Assembly (NCBI RefSeq): GCF_003008615.1
Contig: NZ_CP027657.1
Span: 4,216,001 to 4,280,000, forward strand
Reading direction: 5' to 3'
Length of the DNA: 64,000 nucleotides
Source: Pseudomonas mendocina
Lineage (GTDB): Bacteria; Pseudomonadota; Gammaproteobacteria; Pseudomonadales; Pseudomonadaceae
Part shown: positions 28,480 to 56,804 of the stretch, piece after piece
Numbering within the stretch: the first letter of the stretch is position 1
Layout of the letters: each line of letters starts with the position of its first letter
Notes under the pieces: model-generated
What the model saw: only the letters and a program-made list of their open reading frames with translations
Database searches by the model: none
What the model was told of the DNA's origin: nothing
Position numbers and translations under genes: made by a program

Positions 28480-28555
28480 GGCATTCCTATCCATTGACTC
28501 GAAGGAGATTAAAGGCTTCGCCTTATAAGTCATTTGACCACTGAGGCGACCACGC

Positions 28556-31129: not shown

Positions 31130-31352
31130 TGTATTACCTCCCTGATGGTAGACCATGTCAAAAAGCTATCAGAGCCAACGAGGCGGAGCTAGGTCATTTA
31201 CAGATGTAGAGTGAATCGGCCATAGATTCGTAGACTCCTTCAAGCAGCTGTTTCTGGCTAGGAACGACCACTTTTGGCCGAAAGCGGCCCGATCATTGAG
31301 GCCGGACCGCTAGAGCTCGCCCGTGAAGTAGGTCCCAGATTCAAGGCCACCC

Positions 31353-33532: not shown

Positions 33533-35089
33533 ATGAGGCGGATTTTTTTCAGCAGCGTATTGCTCGTGGTGTCTTCTTTTAGTGGTGCGGCGGAGTTTCG
33601 TTGGCAATACATGCTGGGTGGGCGTATAGGGAATTTTACCAGTCCTTACTATGCATGTGCCGCAGCTGTTGCATCTACTTGGTTTAATGGTAAGAAAGAA
33701 CTTGTTGATGTGGTTTTTACCAGTCCATCCAAGACCACAGCGCACTGTTATGTCCGGCTAAGCCAGTGCAGTGGAACTCAATGTGGAGAATGGTATACGC
33801 CAGAGCCTCCTAACTCGATTGATGGACACCGGGTTAACGCTCTACGAGATGGAGAGGCTTGCTTTCCTGGGCGTACTCTGGATGCTGATCTGGGTATATG
33901 CGTAGATCTTGGCGCTGGCTTACAAGCCGGCGGTGGAGACGCCTCTTGTAAGGTGAGTAATACCGGGCCAGGTGTGTATGCTGGTAATCCTATAAATTTC
34001 TCTGCTGCAAACAAATATGAAAAAATTACTCCATACCGGGCTTCCGTAGGGCGCCTTGAATTTTCCTTGCATTATAATAGTGCGAAGTTGGCTTGGTCTA
34101 ATAGCTACTCTGATCATTTGACGGAGTTTCAAGCGAGGACTTATGTGACCTTGTCGGATGGTAGGATAATCGCGTTTACGGGCACGAGCGGTCGGATGGT
34201 TGCAAAAGAGACTGCTGATATTCTGCAAAAAAATACAGGCGAGTGGGTGCTATACCGCGAAACAGGTGAGAGGCTCTACTTTGATGCCTACGGGCAACTC
34301 AAAAAGGCCGCTTGGCCAGATGATGAATTGGTAATTACAAAAACCAATTATCCTCTGACGACTACTGTGACCTCTCGTCATGGCGAGTCCATTAGTTTCG
34401 TCAGAGGAGGGAATGGGAATCTTCTGAGTGTCAATAGTCCGCAAGGAATCATAACGTTCGAGTATTACACGGATAAAATAACCAAAATAAACCGAAATAT
34501 CGGTGGTGTGCTGTCAACCCAGCTTCTGCATTACGAGCATACACACAAGGGATTGCTGACAGGGATAACGGATGAGCGCGGTATCCGTTACGTGACGTGG
34601 GGGTATGACGAGCAGCGGAGGCCTATTCTCAGTGATAGTTCTTTAGAAGGGGGCGCTACGCATATCCAGTACTCGGAAGATGGGAGTGTCACCGTCACCA
34701 ATCCCTTGGGAAAAAAGACTACTTACACCTTTTTGACTGTAGCTAGTGCCGGTGGATGGATTGATGTAGGTGTCAAGCGAGTTACATCAATCCTAGGTGA
34801 ACCATCACCAAATTGTGCAAGTAGCAATTCAAACTTCACTTATGACACTCGCGGTTTGCTCAAGACCAAGATCGACAACAAGGGTAATCGAACCACTTAC
34901 GATTACAACACCCGTGGTCTTGAGATATCCCGCACTGAGGCCAGTGGTACACCCCAGGCGCGTACTGTTACCACCGCATGGCACCCTGAGTTGTTCTTGC
35001 CGGTGACGATCACGGAGCCTGATCGCATTACCCAATACACCTATGACAACCAGGGGCGGCAGACCAGTCAGTCTGTCACTTCGCGCTGA
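33533..35089 (+). CDS. Exported RHS prefix protein, copy 1
   Basis: A 518-residue protein. Signal peptide at about 1-20; a cysteine-bearing exported domain at about 21-130; then SGNPINFS-like entry into a DUF6531/RHS-type region and YD repeats (TYDTRGLLKT, TYDYNTRGLE, QYTYDNQGRQT). It ends where RHS proteins normally continue into the long YD-repeat shell. It has no core domain and no toxin. A paralogue follows at 35308, and the last 100 residues of the two are nearly identical. Codon use is AT-richer than the surroundings, a sign of transfer. A separate N-terminal module of a split RHS particle is my reading; a relic is the alternative. Confidence 0.75.
   Translation: MRRIFFSSVLLVVSSFSGAAEFRWQYMLGGRIGNFTSPYYACAAAVASTWFNGKKELVDVVFTSPSKTTAHCYVRLSQCSGTQCGEWYTPEPPNSIDGHRVNALRDGEACFPGRTLDADLGICVDLGAGLQAGGGDASCKVSNTGPGVYAGNPINFSAANKYEKITPYRASVGRLEFSLHYNSAKLAWSNSYSDHLTEFQARTYVTLSDGRIIAFTGTSGRMVAKETADILQKNTGEWVLYRETGERLYFDAYGQLKKAAWPDDELVITKTNYPLTTTVTSRHGESISFVRGGNGNLLSVNSPQGIITFEYYTDKITKINRNIGGVLSTQLLHYEHTHKGLLTGITDERGIRYVTWGYDEQRRPILSDSSLEGGATHIQYSEDGSVTVTNPLGKKTTYTFLTVASAGGWIDVGVKRVTSILGEPSPNCASSNSNFTYDTRGLLKTKIDNKGNRTTYDYNTRGLEISRTEASGTPQARTVTTAWHPELFLPVTITEPDRITQYTYDNQGRQTSQSVTSR
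34952..35048 (+). repeat. 97-bp direct repeat, copy 1
   Basis: Identical over 97 bases to 36788-36884; lies in the 3' part of the first RHS prefix gene. Flanking bases are also similar. Confidence 0.95.
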
Positions 35090-35307
35090 CGTGGCATGTA
35101 TTTGTTTGGAAAACCATTTGATTAAGAATGTAGTGCGGTTTTATCGTGGCTAATTATTTTAAAATAAATTTGTACTTTTTTGAGGGTGTTCTGTGTGATG
35201 ACTTGTAAGTGTATAGAGTGCCTTAGTTTTTAGCGTTGTGCTCGGGTTAATATTAAATTCTTTTGGGTTTTTAATGTCATTTGGCAAGGCTTGGTTGGGG
35301 GAGGGGT

Positions 35308-36925
35308 ATGAGGGATAAGGAATCGTGTCGTTTGTTTTGTGGTTTTTATTTGCAGCTGATTCTGATGTTTACGGTGTTCTTCGTACCCGTGCATGCGTGG
35401 GCGGACTATGGGTGGTGGGACTTTATTGGCATAAATTCGCCGGATGTTAAGGGGCCTTATCCAAATGCTGAAATTGCCTGTCAAGTGGCAGTTGCCAGTA
35501 TCTGGTATAGGGGGGAGAAAAGGTTCACTCATCATGTAATGGGCAGCAGCGGTGATTCTGCAACTTGTCATGTAGAGCTCAAAGCATGCAGTACCTGTGA
35601 ATGGCAAGTTCCACAGCCTCCGCACTGGATTGACGGGGGGGGCTATATTGGCAATACGTAAGGGAACGCCTTGTTCATCGGGTAAGGGGGCTGACATCAA
35701 GAGTGGGGCGTGTTTCTTTGACCAGGGGAACCGTCAGGGGAGTCCTCCTGTTAGCTGTGCCACTCCACAGGACAAGAAAGGCAACCCCATATCGATACTG
35801 AGTGGTAACAAATACGCTCAAGAGTCCTTCTATCAAGGGAGCGATCCTTTTCCCGTGAAGCTGGAGTTGGTTTATAACAGTTTGGATAGGCAGTGGCGCC
35901 ACAATTACTCTACTACCCTTCATGAGACCAGTAGTGCGCTTGTTGTTGTATTCGCAGATGGACGATCCGCTGGCTATGATAAGCAAACGGGTGTACCGAT
36001 AAATGGTAGTGAACTCAGTCGTTTGGAAAGGATTGCAGATGGGTGGGTGCATTATTCTCACGGCGGCGAGCAGACGTTCTTTAATGCATCGGGTCGAGTG
36101 GTTCGTATAACGTTTCCTGGGCGGGGCACTGTAGAGTTGTCGTATTCGCCGGCCACCATCATTCGTTACCAATATAATGGTAGGAATTACACGCAGTCGC
36201 AGCGAAATATAAAGGTCAAAGGAAAAACTCAAGAATTGATGGTCGTGGAAAGGGATCAGGCGCGAGTTGTTTCTGCGAGTGTTGATGATAGTAGGTTTTA
36301 CTTTGATTGGGATGTGTCATTGATGCGTTTGAGCGAAGTTTCTTTCAGGTCGTCCCAAACTTCAGATTTGCAGAGCCGCAAGTACCACTACGAATCGATC
36401 TATGGCTCTCAACTTCTAACAGGTATTACCGATGAACGGGGTGTTAGGTATTCGACATGGACTTATGACCCGCAAGGGCGCGCGACCTCCAGCGAGCATT
36501 CCAGCGGGGCGGACAAGGTATCGATTATCTATAGCAACGACGACAGTTCTACCGTCATCAATCCTTTAGGTCAGAGGACGGTTTATCGCTTCGCTGATTT
36601 TGGCGGCGTAAGGCGAATCACGGCAATTGAGGGGGAGCCGTCTCCAAATTGCTCAAGCAGCAACTCGATCTTCACTTATGATGAACGTGGCTTGCTCAAG
36701 ACCAGGATCGACAACAAGGGCAACCGTACGACCTACGAGTACAACTCTCGTGGCCTTGAGGTATCCCGCACTGAAGCCAGTGGTACGCCCCAGGCGCGTA
36801 CTGTTACCACCGCATGGCACCCTGAGTTGTTCTTGCCGGTGACGATCACGGAGCCTGATCGCATTACCCAATACACCTATGACAGCCAGGGGCGGCAGAC
36901 CAGTCAGTCCATCACTCAACGCTGA
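35308..36925 (+). pseudogene. Exported RHS prefix protein, copy 2, with poly-G frameshift
   Basis: ATG at 35308 (site GGGGAGGGG) opens a 117-residue frame with a signal peptide (about 1-34) that ends at 35661. Within the run of eight G at 35635-35642 the frame that continues is shifted by one: seven G would join ...PPHWIDGG to AILAIRKGTPCSSG and give an intact protein of about 538 residues ending at 36925. The restored protein matches copy 1: the same Cys pattern in the first 110 residues, an RHS entry (GNPISILSGNKY), and YD repeats ending QYTYDSQGRQT. It may be phase-variable, a pseudogene or a sequencing error in the homopolymer. Confidence 0.75.
36788..36884 (+). repeat. 97-bp direct repeat, copy 2
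   Basis: Identical over 97 bases to 34952-35048; lies 41 bp before the end of the second prefix gene. Confidence 0.95.
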
Positions 36926-36944
36926 CCACAGAAGGAACTGAACA

Positions 36945-39602
36945 ATGAAAACCTTGTATTGCGGCAGCCTTCTATCGCTGGCTTTGGCTGTTGCTCTCGG
37001 TGCTGCGGGTGTGCAGGCCGCCGAGCGGAACTGGAGTTACACCTACAACAGCCAGGGTCTGATCGAAACGGCCAACGGACCTCGTACCGATGTCTCCGAC
37101 ATCACCACCTACGCCTATGACTCCCAGGGCCGCCTGACGACAGTTACCAATGCACTGAGCCATATCACCCAGCTGTCTAACTTCGACAATTACGGCAATC
37201 CCCAGACGGTGGTGGATGCCAATGGGGTAACCACATCGCTGGGCTATAGCCCCCAAGGTTGGCTGGCCTCGGTCAGTACGGCAGGCAGCACCACTAGTTT
37301 CGAGCACGATGCGATTGGGCAGATCACCAAGGTTACGCGTGGCGATGGAAGCTGGTTGGAATACAGTTGGAGCGCTGCGCGTCGCCTTACCGCGATCACC
37401 AACAACCGTGGGGAAAAAATCGAATATGACTATGACCCCATGGGTAACCGCACAGCCCAGCGGCTACGTGATGCCAGCAACAATCTGAGCCTGCAGCAGA
37501 GCTGGGCTTACGACGAGCTGGGCCGCCTGCTGCGTAGCGTGGGAGCAGCAGGACAGACCTCCCAATACGGCTACGACCTCAATGACAACTCCACGTTGAG
37601 TCGAACGCCCAAACAGCACAACACCACCCGCAGCTTCGATGCACTGGATCGCCTGGTTTCGAGCACCGATCCACTCAATGGCGTTACCCAACTGGCTTAT
37701 GACGCGCAGGACAACCTGACTCAGGTTCAGGATCCGCGCGGCATCACGACGCAATACGAGTACGACGGCCTGGGCAACCTGACTAGGCTGATCAGCCCGG
37801 ACAGCGGCACCACTACCTATGCCCACGATGCTGCGGGCAATGTGCTCAGCAAGACCGATGCTCGGGGCGTAGTCACTACCTACACCTACGATGCACTCAA
37901 TCGTCTGACTGGGCGCCAATATCCGGCAACTCCAGCCCTGAACGTCCAGTACCACTACGACATGACCGCCGATGGCAACCATGGCGTAGGCCGTTTGACC
38001 GCTATCCAGGATGCCAGTGGTGTACTGGGTTATTACTATGACGCGCGCGGAAATCTGACCGGGCAACTGCGATCAGTCGAAGTGGCCGGCACAGATCGCT
38101 ATAGCGGGCTTGGCTACGAATACGATGGCGCCAACCAACTGGCCAAGATCAGTTACTCCCTGGGGTTCAACATCCTCTATGCCCGCAACAGTGCCGGGCA
38201 GGTCAGCCAGGTACAGCTACAAATTGGCGACAATCCTCCTGATGCCCTTGCAAGCCAGATCGAATACCTGCCGTTTGGTCCGCTCAAAAGCCTGACTTGG
38301 GCCAACGGTCTGAGCCTGTCGCGAAGCTACGACCAGGACTACAGGCTGACTCACCAAGAGGTCGCTACCTGGACCAGCACCTACGGTTACGACGCCAACA
38401 GCAATATCGAATCACTGCAAAGCAGCTTGTTCGGAGATCTCACCTACAGCTACGACGCACTGGATCGGCTCACGTCTGAGCATAAGGAAGACCTGCAGCA
38501 GAGCTATAGCTATGACGCTGTAGGGAACCGGCTCAGCAGAACTTCGACCCCGATCGTTAATGGCAGCCCGCAGGCCGGCTCGACTGTAGCGCTCAACTAC
38601 GCGACCAGTAGTAACCGCCTCAGCGAAATCGCGGGCTTTCCTGTCATTAGCGATGCTGCAGGCAACCTGACTCAGGATCGCCCAGCCCGACAGATGGAGT
38701 ACGACGAACAGAACCGGCTGGCACGGGTAAAAAGTGGTGGCGTAACGGTTGCCGAGTACCGTTACAACGCCTTGGGACAGCGTACCCACAAGATCACCAC
38801 GACCGGTACCACGACCTTCCTCTATGACCCCAGTGGTCAGTTGCTGGAGGAGACCTTCTACAACACCGCAGGCCAGCAGCAGAGCAGTCAATTCTACGTC
38901 TGGTTGGATAACCTCCCGCTCGGCGGCATTACCGTCATCTATGGTGCCAATGGTGCAATTGCCTCGAGCGAGCCGTTCTTTTTGCATTTCGATCATCTGG
39001 GCACACCGCGGGTTGCTACCAACGCCAATCTGCAACCTGTATGGACGTGGGCATCTGATGCCTTTGGTATTGGCGCTGCAAGTGGCAGCCTGACCATCAA
39101 TCTGCGTTTCCCAGGGCAGTACTATGACCAAGAAAGTGGTCTGCACTACAACTACTTCAGGGATTACGACCCCGAAACCGGGCGGTACGTGGAAAGCGAT
39201 CCGATTGGGCTATTTGATGGCCCCAACACCTACAGTTATGTATATGGAAACCCTCTCGTCTATTCAGATCCAAGCGGGTTATGCGGAGTTGGCTCAAGCA
39301 TGGAAATTTACTTTGATCGATATAAGGGATTTCAAACTCGCTGTGTTCTAAATCCGCCCCCGCCAAACCCTGAAGCAAAGTGCATGACTGCAGAGTGTGT
39401 AATGCGTAACGGGGATGGTCGAGACACAAGGGGTACTCCAAACTGTCAAATCATGTGTAGGATTCCGACCCTACCTTGCGCCCTTGCCGGGGGGCCATTT
39501 ACACCTCAAGGGGTTGCTTGCAGAGCATCAGTGACTGCAGTGGTGTGCTCAACTATTTGTGACAACGATGAAGAGGCGAAACAGTGTCCAAATGATCAGT
39601 AA
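36945..39602 (+). CDS. Exported RHS core protein with cysteine-rich C-terminal domain
   Basis: An 885-residue protein with a signal peptide at about 1-25 (QAA-E). About 30 YD repeats (e.g. TYAYDSQGRLT, TQYEYDGLGNLTRL) form the shell, and the RHS-associated core with LRFPGQYYDQESGLHYNYFR and GRYVESDPIGL lies near 725-755; it ends at YSDPSGL near residue 780. The remaining 105 residues carry about ten cysteines and have no homology I recognise; by analogy with RHS toxins this is the polymorphic toxin tip. The gene starts 19 bp after copy 2 of the prefix with its own AAGGAA site. The stop overlaps the next small gene. Confidence 0.85.
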   Translation: MKTLYCGSLLSLALAVALGAAGVQAAERNWSYTYNSQGLIETANGPRTDVSDITTYAYDSQGRLTTVTNALSHITQLSNFDNYGNPQTVVDANGVTTSLGYSPQGWLASVSTAGSTTSFEHDAIGQITKVTRGDGSWLEYSWSAARRLTAITNNRGEKIEYDYDPMGNRTAQRLRDASNNLSLQQSWAYDELGRLLRSVGAAGQTSQYGYDLNDNSTLSRTPKQHNTTRSFDALDRLVSSTDPLNGVTQLAYDAQDNLTQVQDPRGITTQYEYDGLGNLTRLISPDSGTTTYAHDAAGNVLSKTDARGVVTTYTYDALNRLTGRQYPATPALNVQYHYDMTADGNHGVGRLTAIQDASGVLGYYYDARGNLTGQLRSVEVAGTDRYSGLGYEYDGANQLAKISYSLGFNILYARNSAGQVSQVQLQIGDNPPDALASQIEYLPFGPLKSLTWANGLSLSRSYDQDYRLTHQEVATWTSTYGYDANSNIESLQSSLFGDLTYSYDALDRLTSEHKEDLQQSYSYDAVGNRLSRTSTPIVNGSPQAGSTVALNYATSSNRLSEIAGFPVISDAAGNLTQDRPARQMEYDEQNRLARVKSGGVTVAEYRYNALGQRTHKITTTGTTTFLYDPSGQLLEETFYNTAGQQQSSQFYVWLDNLPLGGITVIYGANGAIASSEPFFLHFDHLGTPRVATNANLQPVWTWASDAFGIGAASGSLTINLRFPGQYYDQESGLHYNYFRDYDPETGRYVESDPIGLFDGPNTYSYVYGNPLVYSDPSGLCGVGSSMEIYFDRYKGFQTRCVLNPPPPNPEAKCMTAECVMRNGDGRDTRGTPNCQIMCRIPTLPCALAGGPFTPQGVACRASVTAVVCSTICDNDEEAKQCPNDQ

Positions 39603-39879
39603 ACTGACATCACAGTGCCCGCACTGCGGGAAATTTATGCACTCCATGAACTTCGACAGCAACGGCATGGCGACATGTAATCGCTGCCACTCAAAAGTCA
39701 AGTCAGAAAATTACCGGACAGTAACGCTGGCAGCAAACCTATTGTTCTTCTTTGCAATACTTCCATTCAATTCGATTGTTTTCTCAGGAGTTAGCTTTTG
39801 GATTGCCGACGTTGTCGGAGCTGCGTTAGCTTTTATCTTCACGACCCTATGGCTAGAAGTTAGCCTTGTAGAAGAGTAA
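39592..39879 (+). CDS. Zinc-ribbon two-helix membrane protein, candidate RHS immunity protein
   Basis: A 95-residue protein: an N-terminal zinc ribbon with CPHC and CNRC pairs at about 9-12 and 28-31, then two predicted membrane helices (about 42-60 and 63-83). The ATG at 39592 overlaps the RHS stop by 11 bases. Small genes directly after RHS toxins usually encode the immunity protein; a membrane location fits a toxin acting at the envelope. No family recognised. Confidence 0.6.
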   Translation: MISKLTSQCPHCGKFMHSMNFDSNGMATCNRCHSKVKSENYRTVTLAANLLFFFAILPFNSIVFSGVSFWIADVVGAALAFIFTTLWLEVSLVEE

Positions 39880-46518: not shown

Positions 46519-48456
46519 TTACTCTCGTAGATCCACTGCCGGTGCGCCCTGGCCGTCGAACAGCTGGCCTGGGGTGCTGGGCAGGATGCTGGGGCGGCCA
46601 TTTGTGCCGTCGCCGAGGATGCGGATATCGCTGTACTTCTTGCCCGATAGCGCGGCCAAGCCGGCGCCGTCGCGTACCACGGTGGGCCGCAGGAAGACCA
46701 TCAGGTTGCGCTTGATGTGCGAGTCGCGGGTGGAGCGGAACAGGCCGCCAATCAGAGGAATGTCACCGAGCAGCGGTACCTTGGAGGTGGCCTGGGTGAC
46801 GTCGTCCTGAATCAGCCCGCCGAGCACGATCACCTGGCCGTCATCGGCGAGGATGGTGCTCTTGATCGAGCGTTTGTTGGTCACCAGGTCGACCGCCTGG
46901 GCGTTGAGCCCGGTACTGGGGGCTATGGAGGAGATCTCCTGCTCGATCTCCAGGCGCAGGGTGGCGCCTTCGTTGATGCTTGGCGTGACCTTGAGGGTGA
47001 CGCCGATGTCCTTGCGCTCGATGGTGGTGAAGGGGTTGCCGGCGCCCGAGGCGTCGGTGGTGTAGGAGCCGGTCTGGAAGGGCACGTTCTGCCCGACGAG
47101 GATTTCCGCCTTCTGGTTGTCCAGGGTGAGCAGGCTCGGTGTGGACAGCAGGTTGCTCTTGCTGTTGGCCGACAGTGCGGTGATCAGCGCGCCGAAGCGA
47201 TCGCTGCCGACGCCGATGATGGCGCCGTCGGGCAGTGTGGTGTTCTCCGGCACTTCGCCGCTTTGCAGAATCTGCAGCACGGTGCCGACCGACAGACCAG
47301 TGCCGCCGAAATTCACTCCGCCCAGGCCGCCGGTGCTGCCACGGGCGTCCACTGCCCACTGCACGCCGACAGCGTCGGTGATGTCGCCGGAAATCTCCAC
47401 GATGGCCGCCTCGACCATCACCTGGGCGCGTGGCACGTCGAGTTGGCGCACGATGTCCTCGAGGGTGGCGACCAGATCCGGCTCGGCCAGCAGCACCAGG
47501 GCATTGAGGCTCTCGTCGGCGCGGATGAGGATGTTCGATTGCTTGCCGGTGGTTTCGCCAGTTTGCTGGTTCTTCAGGCCTTCGGAGATTTCCCCGAGGG
47601 TTTCGGCCAGGGATTTGGCGTTGTTGTGGCGCAGGCGAATTACCCGGGTGTTGGCCGAGCGGCTGGTGGGGCTGTCCAGCGAGCGGGCGAGGTCGGCCAG
47701 TTTGGCACGGGCATCCGGCGGGCCGAGCAGGATCAGGCGGTTGGTGCGCGCGTCGGCCACCACCTGGGTGGCGCTGGTGCCCTTGGCCTGGCCGCGAGCG
47801 ATGGCGGTGTTGAGCACCTCGGCGGCGTCCATCACCCAGGCGTGTTGCAGGGTGACTACGCTGAAGTCCTGCGCGCCGCTCTGATCGAGCTGGCGCATCA
47901 GGTCTTCGATGCGTTCGATGTTGGCGCTGCGGTCACTGATGATCAGTGCGTTGGACGAGGTGACGGCTGCCAGGTGGCCGTATTGCGGCACCAGTGGACG
48001 GATCAGCGGAATCAGCTCGGCAACCGGCGCGTGCTGCACCTGGATCAGGCGGGTTTCCAGGCGATCCGGTGCGGGCCGGCCGGCGTCGGCTTCGGCCTTG
48101 GCCTCGGCGTTGGGCACGATGCGCGCCTGGTCGCCCTGGGTCAGTACGCTGAAACCATGGGTGGCCATCACCGAAAGGAACAACTGGTAGACCTCGGACA
48201 GGCCCAGCGGTGTGCTCGATACCACGTTGACCTGGCCCTTCACCCGAGGGTCGACGACGAAGGTCTGCCCGGTGATGCTGGCGATCTGGTCGATGAACTC
48301 GCGTATGTCCGCGCCCTTGAGGTTGATGGTCCAGCTTTCTTCCTGCTGGTTGGCGCTGGCCGGCGCCTGTTGGATCTGCGCGAGCAGAGGCAGTGGTGCG
48401 ACGGCCAGGCTGGCGGCGAGGAGGGCGAGGGTCAGTCGGCTTCGGAGAACAGGCAT
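46519..48456 (-). CDS. xcpQ: Type II secretion secretin (GspD/XcpQ)
   Basis: A 645-residue outer-membrane secretin. Signal peptide at about 1-26 (LLA-Q). N0 domain (WTINLKGADIREFIDQIASITG), N1-N3 repeats, then the C-terminal secretin domain with SNLLSTPSLLTLDNQKAEILVG, and the VPLLGDIPLIGGLFRS signature near 560. An S-domain-like tail follows. Start ATG at 48456 is preferred over the ORF start because the signal peptide begins there. It lies directly after xcpP with 4 bp between, opposite to the xcpR operon. Confidence 0.95.
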   Translation of the reverse strand: MPVLRSRLTLALLAASLAVAPLPLLAQIQQAPASANQQEESWTINLKGADIREFIDQIASITGQTFVVDPRVKGQVNVVSSTPLGLSEVYQLFLSVMATHGFSVLTQGDQARIVPNAEAKAEADAGRPAPDRLETRLIQVQHAPVAELIPLIRPLVPQYGHLAAVTSSNALIISDRSANIERIEDLMRQLDQSGAQDFSVVTLQHAWVMDAAEVLNTAIARGQAKGTSATQVVADARTNRLILLGPPDARAKLADLARSLDSPTSRSANTRVIRLRHNNAKSLAETLGEISEGLKNQQTGETTGKQSNILIRADESLNALVLLAEPDLVATLEDIVRQLDVPRAQVMVEAAIVEISGDITDAVGVQWAVDARGSTGGLGGVNFGGTGLSVGTVLQILQSGEVPENTTLPDGAIIGVGSDRFGALITALSANSKSNLLSTPSLLTLDNQKAEILVGQNVPFQTGSYTTDASGAGNPFTTIERKDIGVTLKVTPSINEGATLRLEIEQEISSIAPSTGLNAQAVDLVTNKRSIKSTILADDGQVIVLGGLIQDDVTQATSKVPLLGDIPLIGGLFRSTRDSHIKRNLMVFLRPTVVRDGAGLAALSGKKYSDIRILGDGTNGRPSILPSTPGQLFDGQGAPAVDLRE

Positions 48457-48460
48457 CGGT

Positions 48461-49108
48461 TCAGTCGCTTTCCATGGGCTGATCGGAGGGCGTTTCCACG
48501 GGCAGGGTGCCAGAGGCTTCCATCTGTTCGCGCAGCGCTTGCATGCGCTGGCGCAGTTGTTCGAGGTTGTCCTGGCCGAGTTGATCGAACTGCTGCAGCG
48601 GGTCTTCCGTTGCGGCTTCGACCGGCGGGGTATAGCTGTATTGCCCGCTTTGCGAGCGGGGGAAGGTAAGGCTTTCGCGGCGGCCGTTGCGCACCAGTTC
48701 GACGCGGTCGGCGTAGACGGCATCGAGGCGCACGCCGTTGTCCACGTCCGTACCGATGGCATAACGCTGGGGGCTCTGACCCTGGCGCTGAATCATCGCG
48801 CTGGAGCGCTGCGGGTCGCTGTGCACGAAACTGCCGAGCAAGGTCAGCTGCAGATTGGTGGCTGGCGGTGGGCCACTGTCGGCCTGGCGGGGCGTACCGA
48901 ACAACTGGGCGATGGGCGCCTGAGCGCGTTGTTCGAGGCCGGGGGCTGCTTGGCTGGGGGGCTGTTCCACTGGGCCGCGCACCAGACGCAACAGTTCGGC
49001 GCTCTGCCAGGCCAGGCTGACGCTCAGGGCGATCAGCACGAGCATGCCGATCAGGCTCGGGGCATTGTCCTTGAGCCGCTGGGAAAGGGCCGAGATGGGC
49101 AAAAGCAT
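48461..49108 (-). CDS. xcpP: Type II secretion inner-membrane protein GspC/XcpP
   Basis: A 215-residue protein with one membrane helix (about 20-38), a Pro/Gln-rich periplasmic linker, and an HR domain (about 70-145; QLTLLGSFVHSDPQRSSAMI, RYAIGTDVDNGVRLDAVYADRVEL) that contacts the secretin. The C-terminus holds a coiled coil (QQFDQLGQDNLEQLRQRMQAL) instead of a PDZ domain, as in P. aeruginosa XcpP. A GTG one codon upstream is an alternative start. First gene of the xcpPQ operon. Confidence 0.92.
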   Translation of the reverse strand: MLLPISALSQRLKDNAPSLIGMLVLIALSVSLAWQSAELLRLVRGPVEQPPSQAAPGLEQRAQAPIAQLFGTPRQADSGPPPATNLQLTLLGSFVHSDPQRSSAMIQRQGQSPQRYAIGTDVDNGVRLDAVYADRVELVRNGRRESLTFPRSQSGQYSYTPPVEAATEDPLQQFDQLGQDNLEQLRQRMQALREQMEASGTLPVETPSDQPMESD

Positions 49109-49228
49109 CACTCCGGAAACGACGTTCTAATTCTTCTTATGTGTGCTGGGCGTCGCGCGCTGATCATAGCAGTCTGCGCGCGGTTGGCATCCCCCAAATA
49201 GGGTGGGTGTGCTGTTCCTGGCAATGTG

Positions 49229-49419
49229 TTAGAACCTGCTCACGATCTGCTGCACGTCGGCCCTACTGCGTTAAAAACAGGCTGGAACGCCAGCCCGGTC
49301 GGAATGCTCATTTACAGCTCGTAAAGTCGAGCGCGACTCCGACCGCTCCTCGCCTGTTTTTGCGGGGCCGCCATCGGTATTGTATGGCTCTAGCTCGCGA
49401 GATCCTGAACAGGTTCTTA
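49229..49419. mobile_element. MITE-like element in the xcpP-xcpR promoter region
   Basis: Ends TTAGAACCTG (49229-49238) and CAGGTTCT (49410-49417) form near-perfect terminal inverted repeats. The core 49265-49361, read on the minus strand, contains CGGAGTCGCGCTCGACTTTA and CGAGCTGTAAATGAGCA and the ACAGGC/GCCTGT blocks, also seen in the element at 52371-52523. No ORF; it occupies nearly half of the 420-bp gap between xcpP and xcpR. Remaining bases show only a GGCCCATTGGGCC palindrome near 49459. Confidence 0.7.
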
Positions 49420-49528
49420 AAGATAATTGCATAAACATACAAGAAGACCGTCCTAGAGGTGGCCCATTGGGCCAAAACGGCCAGGTTAGGCTGTAATACC
49501 GGGATAAGGTTCTGTTCTAAGGTCACGC

Positions 49529-51016
49529 ATGAACGCTTCGTTGCTCGAAACCCCGCTGCGCCGCCTGCCCTTCAGCTTTGCCAAGCGTCACGGCCTGGTG
49601 TTCGTCACGCATGATGGGCGCACCAGTCTGGCCCATCGCGTCGACTGTGACCTGGCCGCGTTGGCCGAGGCCCAGCGTTTCGCCGGGCGCAGCCTGCCGC
49701 TGCAGGTGCTAGATGCCCAGGCGTTCGCCCAGGCACTGGGCGCGGCCTATCAACATGACTCCGCCTCCATGCAGCTGGCCGAGGACATCGGTGGCAGTCT
49801 CGATCTGGCCTCGCTGGCCGACCAGGTGCCGGAAACCGAGGATCTGCTGGAGCAGGAGGACGATGCGCCGATCATCCGCCTGATCAACGCTATCCTCGGC
49901 GAAGCGATCAAGGAAAACGCCTCTGACATCCACCTGGAAACCTTCGAGAAGCGCCTTGTCGTGCGCTTTCGGGTGGACGGCATCCTGCGCGAGGTGCTCG
50001 AGCCCAAGCGCGAGCTGGCGGCGCTGCTGGTATCGCGAGTGAAGGTGATGGCGCGCCTGGACATCGCCGAGAAACGCATCCCGCAGGACGGGCGCATTTC
50101 GCTCAAGGTCGGAGGGCGCGAGGTGGACATTCGCGTGTCGACGCTGCCGTCGGCCAATGGCGAGCGGGTGGTGCTGCGACTGCTCGACAAACAGGCCGGG
50201 CGGTTGTCGCTGCAGCATCTGGGCATGCGCGCCGAGGATCGCGCGCTGATGGAAGAAACCGTGCGCAAGCCGCACGGCATTCTGCTGGTCACCGGGCCCA
50301 CCGGCTCGGGCAAGACCACCACGCTGTACGCCAGCCTGGTCAGCCTCAACGATCACACGCGCAACATCCTCACCGTCGAAGATCCCATCGAATACCACCT
50401 CGAAGGTATCGGTCAGACCCAGGTCAACACCAAGGTGGATATGACCTTCGCTCGCGGCCTGCGCGCCATCCTGCGCCAGGATCCGGACGTGGTGATGGTC
50501 GGCGAGATTCGCGACAAGGAAACCGCCGAGATCGCCGTGCAGGCCTCGCTGACCGGCCACCTGGTGCTGTCCACGCTGCACACCAACAGCGCCATCGGAG
50601 CCATTACCCGTTTGGTGGACATGGGCGTGGAGCCCTTCCTGCTGTCGTCATCACTGCTCGGCGTGCTGGCCCAGCGCCTGGTGCGCGTGCTGTGCCCGTC
50701 ATGCAAGGAGCCCTATGCCGCCGATTCGGCCGAATGCGCGTTGCTTGGCGTGCCGGCCAGTTCGCCACCGACCCTGTACCGCGCCCGTGGTTGTGCGCAT
50801 TGTCATCAGCAGGGCTACCGTGGACGTACCGGCATCTATGAGCTGGTGGTGTTCGACGAAAGCATGCGCTCCCTGGTGCATAGCCGCGCTTCCGAACAGG
50901 ACATGACCCGTCATGCTCGCACGCTGGGGCCGAGCATCCGCGACGATGGTCGGCGCAAGGTGCTGGAAGGGGTGACCACGGTCGAGGAAGTGCTACGTGT
51001 GACGCGAGAGGAATGA
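49529..51016 (+). CDS. xcpR: Type II secretion ATPase GspE/XcpR
   Basis: A 495-residue cytoplasmic hexameric ATPase that powers pseudopilus assembly. The N1/N2 region binds XcpY; Walker [10 protein letters not shown] starts at residue 256, the Asp box is EDPIEYH, Walker B-like [14 protein letters not shown] and the His box [10 protein letters not shown] follow, and a four-cysteine zinc loop (LCPSCKEP ... CAHCHQQGY) sits near 390-425. First gene of the rightward xcpR-Z set, divergent from xcpPQ. Confidence 0.97.
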
Positions 51017-51045
51017 TGGCGATTGGGATGTTGGCATCGGCTCTT

Positions 51046-51091
51046 GTAGGAGCGGTTTTAGCCGCGAGTCGTTGTGAATCGCGGCTGAAGC
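51046..51091. repeat. REP-like repeat between xcpR and xcpS
   Basis: GTAGGAGCGGTTTTAGCCGCGA followed by TCGCGGCTGAAGC; the TAGCCGCGA/TCGCGGCTG arms pair. This is the common Pseudomonas REP type and lies inside the 123-bp gap, an unusually wide spacing for this operon. Confidence 0.7.
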
Positions 51092-51139
51092 GCAATGCCG
51101 CCCAACCGTTCCTATGGGGACAACTGGAGCGATTTGCCG

Positions 51140-52357
51140 ATGGCGGCCTTTGAATATATCGCCCTCGACGGGCGCGGCCGTCAGCAGAAGGGCGTGCTGG
51201 AGGCCGACAGCGCGCGCCAGGTGCGTCAGTTGTTGCGCGAGCGCCAGCTGGCGCCGCTGGAGGTCAAGGCCACGCGCAGCCGTGAGCAGGGCAGTGGCGG
51301 AGCGCGTCTTAGCTTTGCTCGTGGCCTGTCGGCGCGTGATCTGGCGCTGGTCACGCGGCAGTTGGCGACGCTGATCCAGGCAGCGCTGCCCATCGAAGAG
51401 GCGCTGCGTGCGGCCGCCGCGCAATCCACCAACTCGCGTATCCAGGGCATGTTGCTGGCGGTGCGCGCTCGCGTGCTGGAGGGCCACAGCCTGGCCGGCA
51501 GCCTCAAGGAGTTTCCCGCCGCCTTCCCCGAGCTGTACCGCGCCACGGTGGCGGCCGGCGAGCATGCCGGGCACCTCGGCCCGGTGCTGGAGCAACTGGC
51601 CGACTACACCGAGCAGCGTCAGCAGTCGCGGCAGAAGGTGCAGTTGGCGCTGCTCTATCCGGTGATCCTGATGTGCGCGTCGTTGCTGATCGTCGGCTTT
51701 CTGCTCGGCTACGTGGTGCCGGACGTGGTCAAGGTCTTCGTCGATTCCGGTCAGACCCTGCCGGCGCTGACGCGCGGGCTGATCGCCCTCAGTGATTGGG
51801 TCAAGGCCTGGGGCCTGGTCGCGTTGGTGGCGCTGGCGCTGGCGGTCTTCGCCTTGCGTGCAGCCCTGCGTGACGAGGCATTCAAGCTACGCTGGCATCG
51901 ATTCCTGCTGCGCATGCCGCTGATTGGGCGACTGGGTCGCGCCACCGATTGCGCGCGTTTCGCCTCGACCCTGGCCATCCTTACCCGCAGTGGCGTACCA
52001 CTGGTGGAGGCACTGGCGATTGCTGGTGAGGTGATCGGCAATCGAGTGATCCGTGGCGAGGTCGTGGTGGCGGCGCAGAAGGTGCGCGAAGGCGGCAGCC
52101 TGACCCGCTCGCTGGAGGCCACTGGGCAGTTTCCGCCGATGATGCTGCACATGATCGCCAGCGGCGAACGTTCGGGCGAGCTGGATCAGATGTTGGCGCG
52201 TACGGCGAAGAACCAGGAAAACGACCTCAGCGCGCAGATCGCCCTGCTGGTCGGGCTGTTCGAGCCGTTCATGCTGGTATTCATGGGGGCAGTGGTGCTG
52301 GTGATCGTGCTGGCCATCCTGTTGCCGATTCTTTCTTTGAACCAAATGGTGGGGTAG
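51140..52357 (+). CDS. xcpS: Type II secretion inner-membrane platform protein GspF/XcpS
   Basis: A 405-residue polytopic protein with three helices (about 172-195, 222-242, 376-400) between two cytoplasmic GspF domains (about 70-190 and 275-395). RQLATLIQAALPIEEALRAA and the second repeat FASTLAILTRSGVPLVEALA show the duplication. The N-terminus FEYIALDGRGRQQKG is typical. ATG at 51140 is chosen, with GGAGCG 12 bases upstream; it is separated from xcpR by a REP element. Confidence 0.95.
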   Translation: MAAFEYIALDGRGRQQKGVLEADSARQVRQLLRERQLAPLEVKATRSREQGSGGARLSFARGLSARDLALVTRQLATLIQAALPIEEALRAAAAQSTNSRIQGMLLAVRARVLEGHSLAGSLKEFPAAFPELYRATVAAGEHAGHLGPVLEQLADYTEQRQQSRQKVQLALLYPVILMCASLLIVGFLLGYVVPDVVKVFVDSGQTLPALTRGLIALSDWVKAWGLVALVALALAVFALRAALRDEAFKLRWHRFLLRMPLIGRLGRATDCARFASTLAILTRSGVPLVEALAIAGEVIGNRVIRGEVVVAAQKVREGGSLTRSLEATGQFPPMMLHMIASGERSGELDQMLARTAKNQENDLSAQIALLVGLFEPFMLVFMGAVVLVIVLAILLPILSLNQMVG

Positions 52358-52370
52358 CTAGGTGAAAAGC

Positions 52371-52523
52371 AGACTGTTGAAACACGTAGGCGAGGAAGCC
52401 AGTGCAAGGCAAAAACAGGCGAGGATCCGGTCGGAGTCGCGTTCGACTTTACGAGCTGTAAATGAGCAGTCCGAGCCTGTTTTTAACGCAGCAATGGCAA
52501 CGCAGGTAGTGTTTCGACGGTCT
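52371..52523. mobile_element. 153-bp MITE-like element inserted at the xcpT start
   Basis: AGACTGTTGAAACAC (52371-52385) and GTGTTTCGACGGTCT (52509-52523) are terminal inverted repeats matching at 13 of 15 positions. The interior shares the CGACTTTACGAGCTGTAAAT core with the element at 49229-49419 but in reverse orientation. Length 153 bp is divisible by three and its sequence has no stop in the xcpT frame. Confidence 0.75.
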
Positions 52524-52946
52524 GCTAGAAGGCAGGCGGGTTTCACACTTATCGAAATCATGGTGGTAGTGGTGATTCTGGGCATTCTGGCGGCGCTGGT
52601 AGTGCCGCAGGTGATGAGCCGGCCGGATCAGGCCAAGGTCACTGCCGCCCAGAACGACATCCGCGCCATCGGCGCGGCGCTGGATATGTACAAGCTCGAC
52701 AACCACAACTACCCCAGCACCCAGCAGGGCCTGGAAGCGCTGGTGAGCAAGCCGAGCGGCAACCCGCCAGCGAAGAACTGGAACAAGGACGGCTACCTCA
52801 AGCGCCTGCCCATCGATCCCTGGGGTAACCCTTATCAATACCTCGCCCCTGGCACCAAGGGCGCCTTCGATCTCTACTCGCTCGGCGCCGACGGCAAGCA
52901 GGGCGGCAGCGACCTGAACGCCGATATCGGTAACTGGGATCTCTGA
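52494..52946 (+). CDS. xcpT: Major pseudopilin GspG/XcpT, start region inside a repeat element
   Basis: A 150-residue prepseudopilin. The processing site is QAG-FTLIEIMVVVVILGI, and SRPDQAKVTAAQNDI, LDMYKLDNHNYPSTQQGLEA and DPWGNPYQYLAPGTKG are the canonical GspG body with the calcium-binding tail DLYSLGADGKQGGSDLNADI. With ATG at 52494 the leader is 16 residues, a normal length, but this ATG lies in the 153-bp element and has no ribosome site. The reading frame stays open back to a GTG at 52362, five bases past xcpS, which may be the old native start; from there the leader would be about 60 residues. Cleavage by the prepilin peptidase is needed. Confidence 0.88.
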   Translation: MATQVVFRRSARRQAGFTLIEIMVVVVILGILAALVVPQVMSRPDQAKVTAAQNDIRAIGAALDMYKLDNHNYPSTQQGLEALVSKPSGNPPAKNWNKDGYLKRLPIDPWGNPYQYLAPGTKGAFDLYSLGADGKQGGSDLNADIGNWDL

Positions 52947-52953
52947 CCCGAGC

Positions 52954-53475
52954 ATGATCGGCGTGCCGGCAAAAACGCGCGGCTTCACCCTCATCGAGCT
53001 ATTGGTGGTGCTGGTGATTCTCGGCAGCCTGATCGGTCTGGCGGTGTTCAGCACCGGCATCGCCGGGCCCGGGCGCGAACTGCGCAGCGAAGCCGAGCGC
53101 CTCAGTGGGCTGATTGGCGTGCTGCTCGACGAAGCGGTGCTGGATAACCGTGAGTACGGCCTGAGTTTCACCCGCGAAGGCTATCGAGTCCTGCGTTATG
53201 ACCCACTGCGTGCCGAGTGGCAGGCCCTCGATCGCCAGGCCCATCGCCTGCCAGAATGGGCCATGCTGGAGTTCGAGGTCGAAGGTGAGGCCCTTAGCCT
53301 ACCTGTGACGGCCAGTGCCGCCGCGCCGCAGTTGCTGATTCTCTCCAGTGGCGAGCTGACACCGTTTCGCCTGCGCCTGGCCGAACGTCGTCGCGATGGC
53401 TTGCGCCTGCAATTGTCCAGCGATGGCTTCGGCCTGCCGCGTGTCGAGGAACTGGGCGCGGGACGTGCCGGATGA
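52954..53475 (+). CDS. xcpU: Minor pseudopilin GspH/XcpU
   Basis: A 173-residue prepseudopilin. Leader KTRG-FTLIELLVVLVILGSL is processed after the glycine; Glu5 is present. The body has the GspH domain with LRSEAERLSGLIGVLLDEAV and REYGLSFTREGYRVL. It starts 7 bp after xcpT and overlaps xcpV by four bases. It helps build the pseudopilus. Confidence 0.92.
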   Translation: MIGVPAKTRGFTLIELLVVLVILGSLIGLAVFSTGIAGPGRELRSEAERLSGLIGVLLDEAVLDNREYGLSFTREGYRVLRYDPLRAEWQALDRQAHRLPEWAMLEFEVEGEALSLPVTASAAAPQLLILSSGELTPFRLRLAERRRDGLRLQLSSDGFGLPRVEELGAGRAG

Positions 53476-53855
53476 GGTCGGCGCGCGGCTTTACTCTGCT
53501 CGAGGTACTGGTGGCCCTGGCCATCTTCGCTCTGGTCGCCGCCAGCGTGCTTACTGCCAGCGCGCGCAGTGTCCGTACCGCCAGCCAACTGGAAGACAAG
53601 ACCCTGGCCATGTGGGTGGCCGACAATCGCCTGACGGAGTTGCAACTGGCCGATACGCCACCGGCCGATGGCCGCGACCAGGGCCAGGTGGAGTTCGCCG
53701 GGCGCCGCTGGGTGTGGCAGAGCGAAATCCAGGCCACCAGCGAACCGGCCATGCGCCGAGTGACGCTGTGGGTTGTCGCTGAAGAACGCGGCGTCAGCGG
53801 TGATCTGCGTGAGCGGGCGCTGGTGACCCTCAGCGGTTTCCTGGGGGCGCCATGA
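53472..53855 (+). CDS. xcpV: Minor pseudopilin GspI/XcpV
   Basis: A 127-residue prepseudopilin: RSARG-FTLLEVLVALAIFALVAASVL leader and helix, then LEDKTLAMWVADNRLTELQL and FAGRRWVWQSEIQAT, characteristic of GspI. It nucleates the pseudopilus tip with XcpW and XcpX. Its 3' end lies in a duplicated 48-bp block (see the repeat at 53820). Confidence 0.92.
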   Translation: MRSARGFTLLEVLVALAIFALVAASVLTASARSVRTASQLEDKTLAMWVADNRLTELQLADTPPADGRDQGQVEFAGRRWVWQSEIQATSEPAMRRVTLWVVAEERGVSGDLRERALVTLSGFLGAP

Positions 53856-54038
53856 TGCGTAGGAGCGAGCTCTGCTCGCGAATCCGTTCGCTCGCGACGC
53901 TCGCTCCAGCCCGTAGGATGGGCCGGGCGGTGCTCCGCTTCAGCCCACCAACAGCGGCCAGCCTTGGTGGGCTAAAGCCCACCCTGCCAACTGGTGACCC
54001 TCAGCGGTTTTCTGGGGGGGCCATGATGTGTGGGAGCG
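53820..54038 (+). repeat. Junction duplication with inserted palindromes between xcpV and xcpW
   Basis: 53820-53867 and 53991-54038 are direct repeats matching at 44 of 48 positions; each holds the xcpV end/xcpW start (CTGGTGACCCTCAGCGG ... CCATGATG). The 123 bp between contain a GGAGCGA/TCGCTCC palindrome (53862-53907) and a second inverted repeat with GGTGGGCT ends. The offset is 171 bp, so the xcpW frame stays open across the block. Confidence 0.85.
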
Positions 54039-54697
54039 CTCAGCGCGGCTTCACCCTGCTGGAGCTGCTGATCGCCATCGTCATCTTCGCCCTGCTGGGC
54101 TTGGCCACCTACCGCATGCTCGACAGCGTGCTCAGCGCCGATGCCGTCACCCGTGAACACGAACGCCAGCTGCGTGAACTGACGCGCGCCTTGTCAGCTT
54201 TCGAGCGTGACCTGCGCCAGGTGACGGTACGGCCGATTCGCGATGGTTTCGGCGATCCACAACCGGCGCTGCATGGTGATCTGGCCGATGCCACGACGCT
54301 GGAGCTGACCCGCGCCGGCTGGCGCAACCCGCTCGGCCAGCCGCGTGCCGAGGTGCAGCGAGTGCGCTGGCAGCTCAGTGGCGAGCAGTGGCAGCGGCGT
54401 TACTGGCGTGTGCTGGATCGCGCGCAGGACAGCGCGCCGCAGATCCAGCAGGCGCTCGATGGTGTCGAGTCATTGAGCCTGCGCTTTCTGGACAAGGAGG
54501 GGCAGTGGCAGCCCGACTGGCCGCCGGCCAATGCCTCGGGTGATGGGCTGCTCACCGATTTGCCGCGCGCGATCGAGCTGCGTCTGCAGCATCGGCGTTA
54601 TGGCGAATTGCGCCGCCTGCTGCGCTTGCCGGATCTGCCGGCGGAAAACCGTGATGGTGCCCCGCCGGATGATTCGAATGAGGTGCCGCAGTCATGA
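54023..54697 (+). CDS. xcpW: Minor pseudopilin GspJ/XcpW
   Basis: A 224-residue prepseudopilin. From ATG at 54023 the leader is MMCGSAQRG-FTLLELLIAIVIFALLGLATY, a normal length; the ORF also opens at 53852, in an ATGA overlap with xcpV, which would give a 65-residue leader through the duplicated block. The body shows RELTRALSAFERDLRQV and the Asp-rich C-terminus typical of GspJ. It ends in an ATGA overlap with xcpX. Confidence 0.9.
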   Translation: MMCGSAQRGFTLLELLIAIVIFALLGLATYRMLDSVLSADAVTREHERQLRELTRALSAFERDLRQVTVRPIRDGFGDPQPALHGDLADATTLELTRAGWRNPLGQPRAEVQRVRWQLSGEQWQRRYWRVLDRAQDSAPQIQQALDGVESLSLRFLDKEGQWQPDWPPANASGDGLLTDLPRAIELRLQHRRYGELRRLLRLPDLPAENRDGAPPDDSNEVPQS

Positions 54698-55668
54698 GGC
54701 GGCAGAATGGGGTGGCCCTGATTACCGTATTGCTGGTGGTCGCCGTGGTGACGGTGGTCTGCGCCGGCTTGATCGCTCGCCAGCAACTGTCGATCCGCAG
54801 CAGCGCCAACCAGTTGCACGTGACTCAGGCCTGGCATTACGCGCTGGGGGGCGAGACGCTGGCCAAGGCGATCCTCGAGCGCGACCTGCGCCAGGGCGAT
54901 CCGCGCCAGCCGGTGGATCATCCGCTGGAGCCCTGGGCTCGGCCGCTGGCGCCGTTCCCGCTGGATGAGGGCGGCGAGCTGCGTGTGCGTATCGTCGACC
55001 CCAGCGGTCGTTTCAACCTCAACAGCCTGGTGCGTCAGGGCCGGCCCAACGAGCTGGCGGTGCTGCGTTTGCGCCGTCTGTTGCTGCGCTTGGGGATAGA
55101 CAAGCCTTATGCCGAGCGCCTGCTGGACTGGCTGGATACCGACAGCGAGCAACAAGGTGGCAATGGCGCCGAGGATGGCCAATACCTGTTGGCGACGCCG
55201 CCTTACCGCACGGCCAATCGCGAGATCACAGACGTGTCCGAACTGCGCCTGCTGCTGGAGATGGAGGAAGCCGACTATCGCCGCCTGCAGCCCTTCGTCA
55301 GCGCCTTGCCGGGCGAGGCGCTGCTCAACGTCAACACGGCCAGCGCGATGGTGCTCTCCAGCCTGTCCGACGGATTGAGTCCGGATGCGGCTGTGTCGTT
55401 GATCGCCGGGCGCGGTGCCGAAGGCTATCCCAGTGCTGCCGCATTCGCTGCTCAGCCTGCACTCGCGGGGCTGGGCGAGCAGGTGGTGCAAGGGCTGGCG
55501 GTCGGCAGCCAGTATTTCGAAGTGTTCAGTGAAGTGAGCCTGGGCGAACGCCGGGTGGTCTTGCGCAGCCTGTTGCAGCGCAGCAATGATGGCCAGGTCA
55601 GTGTCCTGGCGCGTGATCTGGGGCAGGGCGGCATGCCGCCACGTCCTATCGAGGAAGAACAAGAATGA
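54694..55668 (+). CDS. xcpX: Minor pseudopilin GspK/XcpX
   Basis: A 324-residue prepseudopilin, the largest. Leader RRQNG-VALITVLLVVAVVTVV lacks the Glu5 of other pseudopilins, as is normal for GspK. The large alpha domain (about 100-240) holds DWLDTDSEQQGGNG and LLNVNTASAMVLSSL patterns. It caps the pseudopilus tip. Overlaps both neighbours by four bases. Confidence 0.94.
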   Translation: MRRQNGVALITVLLVVAVVTVVCAGLIARQQLSIRSSANQLHVTQAWHYALGGETLAKAILERDLRQGDPRQPVDHPLEPWARPLAPFPLDEGGELRVRIVDPSGRFNLNSLVRQGRPNELAVLRLRRLLLRLGIDKPYAERLLDWLDTDSEQQGGNGAEDGQYLLATPPYRTANREITDVSELRLLLEMEEADYRRLQPFVSALPGEALLNVNTASAMVLSSLSDGLSPDAAVSLIAGRGAEGYPSAAAFAAQPALAGLGEQVVQGLAVGSQYFEVFSEVSLGERRVVLRSLLQRSNDGQVSVLARDLGQGGMPPRPIEEEQE

Positions 55669-56804
55669 ACCCGACATGGATATTCCTGCCGCCCGAGGCG
55701 TGTCACGACTTGTCAGCGGATTTACCCGTGCAGCGGGTCACGCCTGATGAGTGTCGCGCCATGAGTTTGGCCGAGGCTCTAGCTGAGTTGCCTGTGCACT
55801 GGGAGCTGGTATTGCCGGTGGAGGTGGTCACCGCCTGCGCCGTGCTGCTGCCGACGCAGAAGGCACGCTGGATGCGCCAGGCGCTACCGTTCGCGGTGGA
55901 GGAACTGCTGGCTGAGGATGTCGAGCTGATGCACCTGGCGCTGGGTGAACAGCTGGCCGATGGTCGTCATCGCGTCTATGCGCTGCGCGCCAACTGGTTG
56001 CGCGAGTGCCTGGCGCTGTTCGCGGTGCAGCCGCCGAAGGCGATCCGTGTCGATGCCGACCTGTTGCCGCGCCAGGGCAGTCAGTTGCTCTGGCTGCACT
56101 CGCGTTGGTTGCTTGGCGGCGAGGCGCCCTGGCGTCTGGCCTTGCAGGCGGAGGACTGGCCGGCGCTGGCGGGGCGTTGTCCATCGCCGTGCATCGTCAG
56201 TGCGCCGGCTGGTCAGGCACTGCCGGAGCAGGTTGACGAGGTGCATCTGCTGGAGGATGCGCATCAATGGCTGGTGCGTCAGGGCGGTGGTGCCGATCTG
56301 GCTCAGGGGGAGTTCGCCTTGCGCCAGAGTGGTGATGGCTGGCGGCGCTGGCGTCCGCTGGCCGGCGTGTTGGCGCTGTGTCTCTTTCTGCAGTGGGGGT
56401 TCAGTCTGGCTCAGGGCTGGTATCTGCAGCGTGAGGCCGATGCCTATGCAGCTTCCAGCGAGGCCCTGTACCGCGAGCTGTTTCCGCAGGACAACAAGTT
56501 GATCAACCTGCGTGCGCAGTTCGATCAACATCTCGCGCAGTCTGCTGGTCGCGACAGTCCGGTTCTGGGTCTGCTGGCCGAGGTAGCGGCAGCGCTGCAT
56601 GCCGAGGGCGCACCACAGGTGCAGGTCAATCAGCTCGACTACAGCGCGACCCGGGCCGATATGTCGCTGCAATTGCAGGCGCCAGGCTTCGCCGAACTGG
56701 AGCGCTTGCGTGAGCGCCTGGAAGCGTCTGGCCTGTCGGTACAGATGGGCTCGGCCAGCCGTGAAGCCGAAGGCGTCAGCGCACGCGTGGTGATAGGAGG
56801 ATGA
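55665..56804 (+). CDS. xcpY: Type II secretion platform protein GspL/XcpY
   Basis: A 379-residue protein: cytoplasmic actin-like domain (about 1-225; KARWMRQALPFAVEELLAED), one membrane helix (about 232-250) and a ferredoxin-like periplasmic domain (about 290-379). It links the ATPase XcpR to the membrane platform. Start in an ATGA overlap with xcpX, stop overlapping xcpZ. Confidence 0.93.
   Translation: MNPTWIFLPPEACHDLSADLPVQRVTPDECRAMSLAEALAELPVHWELVLPVEVVTACAVLLPTQKARWMRQALPFAVEELLAEDVELMHLALGEQLADGRHRVYALRANWLRECLALFAVQPPKAIRVDADLLPRQGSQLLWLHSRWLLGGEAPWRLALQAEDWPALAGRCPSPCIVSAPAGQALPEQVDEVHLLEDAHQWLVRQGGGADLAQGEFALRQSGDGWRRWRPLAGVLALCLFLQWGFSLAQGWYLQREADAYAASSEALYRELFPQDNKLINLRAQFDQHLAQSAGRDSPVLGLLAEVAAALHAEGAPQVQVNQLDYSATRADMSLQLQAPGFAELERLRERLEASGLSVQMGSASREAEGVSARVVIGG

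What the first reader, a model, noticed from the sequence alone, without database searches (positions are those of the whole stretch)
33533..39879. Split RHS locus with two paralogous exported prefix proteins and a separately exported core
Normally one RHS polypeptide carries the N-terminal region, YD repeats, core and toxin tip. Here the prefix ends with a stop right after QYTYDSQGRQT, and the next gene has its own signal peptide and begins at the point where the YD repeats would go on. The prefix exists twice, with diverged exported domains of shared Cys pattern and near-identical 3' ends. I read this as a two-part exported particle with interchangeable prefixes, which I have not seen described. 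Decay of a once single gene is the alternative.
Basis: partly seen in the sequence, partly recalled or inferred. Interest (0 to 1): 0.75.

Follow-up and report, generated by a model that had tools for sequence, protein, structure and literature searches.

The report
Two-part exported Rhs toxin shell
A bacterial toxin capsule normally made as one giant protein is here encoded as two separately exported proteins, an arrangement kept in many species, often with several alternative front pieces beside one toxin-bearing back piece.

Summary
The break is real and conserved, not decay in one strain. All 20 genus genomes (of 298 searched) with a full-length close core have separate prefix and core genes, the core with its own signal peptide; so do 18 of 80 named loci. 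The cut falls in the same loop. Split cores do not form one clade (AU p 1e-91), so split and fused forms interconverted repeatedly. One core may have one to four tandem prefixes; their N-domains are diverse, their last ~100 residues are homogenised and track the core. The AlphaFold core is a cocoon that starts at the cut and matches the C-terminal two thirds of solved Rhs cocoons; Tc toxins are cut about 195 residues further on. Type II secretion genes adjoin several loci, and a fused Rhs bacteriocin, Bcn-A, needs that system (PMC7259588, passages). Best reading: a Sec-exported two-part Rhs shell with exchangeable front ends, probably secreted by T2SS. Assembly and secretion are inferred.

The parts
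33533..35089 (+). Prefix 1: signal peptide, Cys-bearing N-domain (about residues 21-145), DUF6531-like cork region, YD repeats; ends 13 residues after the last YD
   Evidence: ORF; RHS_repeat; relatives; AlphaFold pLDDT 82.9, body above 90 in most blocks, last strand 510-517
35308..35661 (+). Prefix 2, first open piece (signal peptide and N-domain)
   Evidence: frame ends after the G run 35636-35643
35597..36925 (+). Prefix 2, second open piece in another frame (DUF6531, YD repeats)
   Evidence: DUF6531 36.1 bits and RHS_repeat 64.1 bits
35636..35643 (+). Run of eight G at or near which the frame of prefix 2 changes
   Evidence: sequence
34769..35068 (+). 3' repeat, copy in prefix 1
   Evidence: 86% with 36605-36904; codon-level identity
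36605..36904 (+). 3' repeat, copy in prefix 2
36926..36944 (+). 19-nt gap between prefix stop and core start, with an AGAAGGA ribosome-binding-like sequence
36945..37019 (+). Predicted signal peptide of the core (25 residues, ends AxA-like VQA)
   Evidence: heuristic
36945..39602 (+). Core: YD shell, Rhs-associated core, toxin tip
   Evidence: RHS_repeat 13 stretches; TIGR03696 78.7 bits, cut-off 32.5; AlphaFold pLDDT 85.1; structural match to Rhs cocoons
39285..39599 (+). Variable C-terminal tip after the DPSGL motif, Cys-rich, predicted disordered
   Evidence: alignment A1 falls apart here; pLDDT under 50 for 781-885; no Pfam match
39559..39879 (+). Overlapping small gene, zinc-ribbon-like with hydrophobic stretches; putative immunity gene (inferred from position)
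   Evidence: weak zinc-ribbon matches only
46519..57331 (.). Type II secretion cluster (gspC-M), about 7 kb downstream; context, not part of the locus

Best explanation
A polymorphic Rhs toxin whose cocoon is encoded in two pieces. Prefix and core are translated separately and each carries a Sec signal peptide (shown by sequence). In the periplasm they are inferred to fold and join at the cut hairpin, the prefix giving the cork and first strands and the core the rest of the shell, the aspartyl autoprotease motif and the enclosed toxin tip. The variable N-domain of the prefix is inferred to be an outward targeting or anchoring module; tandem prefixes would let one toxin core be dressed with different front ends, while gene conversion keeps their core-facing ends matched. 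The assembled particle is inferred to leave the cell by the type II secretion system, as published for the fused Rhs bacteriocin Bcn-A.
For: Conserved two-gene layout: 20 of 20 close genus genomes, 18 of 80 named loci. Gap 15-26 nt in 19 of 20 genus loci, one 180 nt, with a ribosome-binding-like sequence, and all three frame offsets occur, so no read-through. Same cut: tail after the last YD is 13-14 residues in 35 of 42 loci; with the mature core start the modal sum to the GPRTD motif is 32, against 33-35 in 7 of 9 fused relatives measured (the pattern misplaced some rows). Interconversion: 8 changes on 76 rows, 9 on 89 rows, AU test rejects one split clade. Within arrays N-domains are 10-32% identical and residues 421-518 56-91%. 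Residues 421-518 of the prefix correlate with the core (Mantel rho 0.68, p 0.0002); the N-domain does not (0.08). Core model 24-779 aligns to Tse5 371-1168, Tse15 603-1403, Tre23 551-1357, RhsA 581-1461, leaving the cork side for the prefix; prefix profile matches Tre23 251-560. T2SS genes adjoin RHS in L064, L065, L089, L104, L084, L086.
Against: No complex was predicted or measured. Prefix structure could not be searched (fold search busy). Linkage and gene conversion could give the Mantel signal without contact, and only 5 of 21 loci had a different 'farthest' prefix. In two of seven arrays (L067, L079) the last block is closer to another locus than to its own partner. L135 has a core with signal peptide and no recognisable prefix beside it. 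L239 has a second core frame without a clear signal peptide. In this assembly prefix 2 is broken. Most split loci (for example 36 of 39 genomes judged by gspE position) have their T2SS elsewhere.
Confidence: 0.6

Rival explanations
1. Decay: one ancestral gene broken by stops in this strain, the signal peptide being chance.
For: Prefix 2 is frame-broken here; broken prefix or core copies exist in G192 and G212 loci.
Against: The same break with signal peptide, ribosome-binding-like sequence and open frames recurs in 20 of 20 close genus genomes and 18 of 80 named loci. A real break elsewhere (L160) has no signal peptide at the break. Signal-peptide codons differ mostly at position 3 in 60 related pairs, 0.33, 0.24, 0.56 (pairs not independent).
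Confidence: 0.03
2. Prefix and core are two independent exported YD proteins (for example adhesins) that merely descend from one gene and do not assemble.
For: Each has its own signal peptide; some prefixes of family f215 carry long C-terminal extensions beyond the cut; L135 core lacks an adjacent prefix.
Against: Complementary ends, repeated split and fusion at one point, and covariation of the prefix end with the core. The core model alone lacks the cork side of known cocoons.
Confidence: 0.2
3. The pair assembles, but leaves the cell or acts by another route: surface display, outer membrane vesicles, lysis, or T6SS.
For: Most T2SS clusters lie elsewhere; this genome has two T6SS VipB genes; GspE over the cut-off is common in the genus anyway (215 of 298).
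Against: Signal peptides on both proteins do not fit cytoplasmic loading of T6SS; T2SS genes directly beside RHS in several lineages; Bcn-A activity is lost in an xpsD mutant (PMC7259588, passages).
Confidence: 0.25

Closest known systems
Bcn-A of Xanthomonas perforans (PMC7259588, passages seen)
   Same: Rhs/YD protein, extracellular antibacterial activity, over 100 kDa in supernatant, T2SS-dependent, inner-membrane immunity protein (as reported)
   Different: One 1,398-aa protein; no separate prefix or prefix array described in the passages seen; the paper calls it devoid of a signal sequence; its sequence was not compared here
Tc toxin TcB-TcC cocoon
   Same: An Rhs cocoon made from two separately encoded chains
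   Different: TccC2 and YenC2 begin at core model residue about 220, some 195 residues after this cut; no SpvB or propeller found here in the proteins scanned
T6SS Rhs effectors RhsA, Tse5, Tre23, Tse15
   Different: Single translated chains, loaded from the cytoplasm; here two genes with signal peptides and no PAAR match
Polymorphic toxins with a signal peptide and RHS repeats (PMC3482391, passages seen)
   Same: Sec signal, RHS repeats, variable tip
   Different: No two-gene shell or prefix array in the passages seen

Membership tests
Rhs/YD polymorphic toxin | YD repeats | tested here: met
   RHS_repeat in prefix 1, prefix 2b and core
Rhs/YD polymorphic toxin | Rhs-associated core and PxxxxDPxGL-type motif | tested here: met
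   TIGR03696 78.7 bits, cut-off 32.5; P770, D775, G778 invariant in 21 cores; autoproteolysis itself not testable
Rhs/YD polymorphic toxin | Variable C-terminal tip | tested here: met
   A1 conserved to about residue 780, variable after
Rhs/YD polymorphic toxin | Cognate immunity gene | tested here: inconclusive
   Overlapping small gene 39559-39879; no family
Rhs/YD polymorphic toxin | Single polypeptide | tested here: not met
   Two genes
T6SS Rhs effector | N-terminal PAAR or related T6SS-loading domain, no signal peptide | tested here: not met
   No such Pfam match in the window proteins; signal-peptide-like N-termini
Tc toxin B-C pair | Cocoon split between two chains | tested here: met
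   Two genes; fold match (core only)
Tc toxin B-C pair | TcB SpvB and beta-propeller parts | tested here: not met
   No such Pfam match in window prefixes or ten other prefixes
Tc toxin B-C pair | Same cut position | tested here: not met
   TcC chains align from model residue 220 on
T2SS-secreted Rhs bacteriocin (Bcn-A type) | T2SS-dependent extracellular antibacterial activity | not testable with these tools
   Only gene neighbourhood evidence

The most novel reading that the evidence does not exclude
A two-ended combinatorial toxin system: one toxin-bearing core, exported alone, is completed in the periplasm by one of several alternative exported prefixes that aim it, and the closed particle is secreted by T2SS, in some lineages with a GspC of its own. 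Polymorphism then exists at both ends, cargo at the 3' end and targeting at the 5' end, with gene conversion keeping the joint compatible.
Probability: 0.4. Interest if true: 0.88.

Novelty: new variant of a known kind. Interest (0 to 1): 0.75.

Why it matters
If true, an Rhs shell can be assembled from two exported chains, the front end can be changed without touching the toxin, and large Rhs cocoons have a plausible route (Sec, assembly in the periplasm, T2SS) independent of T6SS and Tc injection. The array makes a testable prediction about how one toxin could meet several targets, and the repeated cut at one loop marks a natural joint of the cocoon.

Tried and rejected
Decay was tested first and rejected. 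Stop read-through was rejected by frame offsets of 0, 1 and 2. One clade of split cores was rejected (69 of 89 rows after dropping 20 near-copies and long branches). Tip families: none in Pfam for the window tip. Promoter and terminator scan gave no more than chance. T2SS neighbourhood: 124 loci scanned, including at least four contigs held twice; L138 matched gspE and gspF weakly on opposite strands and was not counted; L066 has the window's amidase (91%) but no gsp gene in the fetched stretch. The chance estimate (1.15 expected with any T2SS gene, p 0.03 for four lineages; 0.023 expected adjacent, p 2e-6 for three) is rough, uses assumed genome and operon sizes, and was made after seeing the data. 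Fisher p 0.011 for GspE over the cut-off (19 of 20 against 196 of 278) ignores relatedness. Prefix model could not be compared with PDB (fold search busy each time); viral library not searched.

Full report
What is there. On the + strand lie prefix 1 (33533-35089), a second prefix in two open pieces (35281-35661 and 35597-36925, frame change at or near a run of eight G), the core (36945-39602) and an overlapping small gene (39559-39879). G+C drops to about 0.47-0.59 over 33-40 kb against 0.60-0.68 in most of the window outside 27-40 kb. The core occurs once in this 5.77-Mb genome. The window genome belongs to a genus whose named relatives in these searches are mostly Pseudomonas.

The split is conserved. 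Of 298 genus genomes, 20 (this one included) have a full-length core match of 48% identity or more, and all 20 have it as a separate frame of about 885-970 aa with a separate upstream prefix. G154 and G212 held only partial or contig-broken cores; fused relatives in the genus are more distant (G130 and G148 at 35%, G054:C14 at 44%). The gap is 15-26 nt in 19 of 20 fetched genus loci and 180 nt in one, with all three frame offsets. Of 80 named loci, 18 are split (four of them the same contigs as genus loci), L135 has a core with no recognisable prefix, and the others are fused or incomplete. A class-wide search (369 genomes, 26 with a match) added G647 and an order-wide search (293 genomes, 44 with a match) added several families, among them f215 with five full-length split-size cores each in G698 and G788.

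The cut is always at one place. Fused relatives read on through a short loop. In 42 split loci the prefix tail after its last YD is 13 or 14 residues in 35; the pattern missed four and gave other lengths in three. Tail plus mature core start is typically 32 residues, against 33-35 in 7 of 9 fused proteins (40 in one, pattern misplaced in one). The label changes 8 times on a 76-row tree and 9 times on 89 rows (49 split, 40 fused); branches with high support force at least 5 and 8, 4 on the 69-row tree, and one split clade is rejected. A fused Nitrotoga sequence sits among split Pseudomonas ones.

Prefix arrays. G194 and G715 have four prefixes, Amphritea pacifica three, G054:C31, G018, G056, G647, G730 and G754 two (G056 has one downstream of the core; G754 has a truncated core between). 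Among 60 prefixes N-domains form 25 phmmer clusters, the largest with 25 members. Within arrays the N-domain is 10-32% identical and residues 421-518 are 56-91%; in L067 and L079 another locus is closer. In the window codon identity at shared residues climbs to 33 of 34 at the 3' end, which points to recent gene conversion. Prefix residues 421-518 correlate with the core over 21 genus loci (rho 0.68, p 0.0002), also without the deep clade (0.61, n 17); the N-domain and residues 341-420 do not; residues 150-340 do weakly (0.31, p 0.016). Physical linkage is an alternative cause.

Export. Both proteins have signal-peptide-like N-termini. This genome has one T2SS gspD over the cut-off, in a gspC-M cluster about 7 kb from the core. 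In Marinobacterium stanieri (L104) a gspD-M operon ends about 600 nt before the prefix, same strand. A gspC-like gene (Pfam T2SSC) lies 100-300 nt before the prefix in L064, L065 and L089, a related group. Two fused loci, L084 and L086, also adjoin gsp genes. Most loci do not. Passages of PMC7259588 report that Bcn-A, a fused Rhs bacteriocin, loses activity in an xpsD mutant. This makes T2SS the most likely route, unproven here.

Verdict. A conserved two-gene variant of Rhs toxins, with arrays of alternative exported front ends. Separate translation, signal peptides, position of the cut and recurrence are shown by sequence; assembly, targeting role and T2SS export are inferred.

Noticed in passing
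window 27556-31156 (-): Candidate defence genes in the same low-GC stretch: PDC-S06 (1094.6 bits, full length) and an Mrr_cat protein with a partial PD-T4-6 match.
   Followed up: partly
L230, L231, L235, L229 (family f215): Prefixes run on for hundreds of residues after the cut; in the two read out (L231, L235) the extension has an Asp-rich repeat-like stretch and a further domain.
   Followed up: partly
L136/L241 2034-5640: Possible three-part split: the Rhs-associated core and tip are a third 216-residue frame with its own signal-peptide-like start.
   Followed up: partly
L227 8284-14719: Prefix, 144-residue truncated core with signal peptide, second prefix, full core: looks like a tandem insertion step.
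   Followed up: no
L084 5432-9416: A small gene after a fused Rhs gene overlaps a gspK-like gene followed by gspE and gspF.
   Followed up: partly
L104 14467-15315; L197 15339-15881: Displaced 3' Rhs core fragments downstream, like spare toxin-tip cassettes.
   Followed up: no
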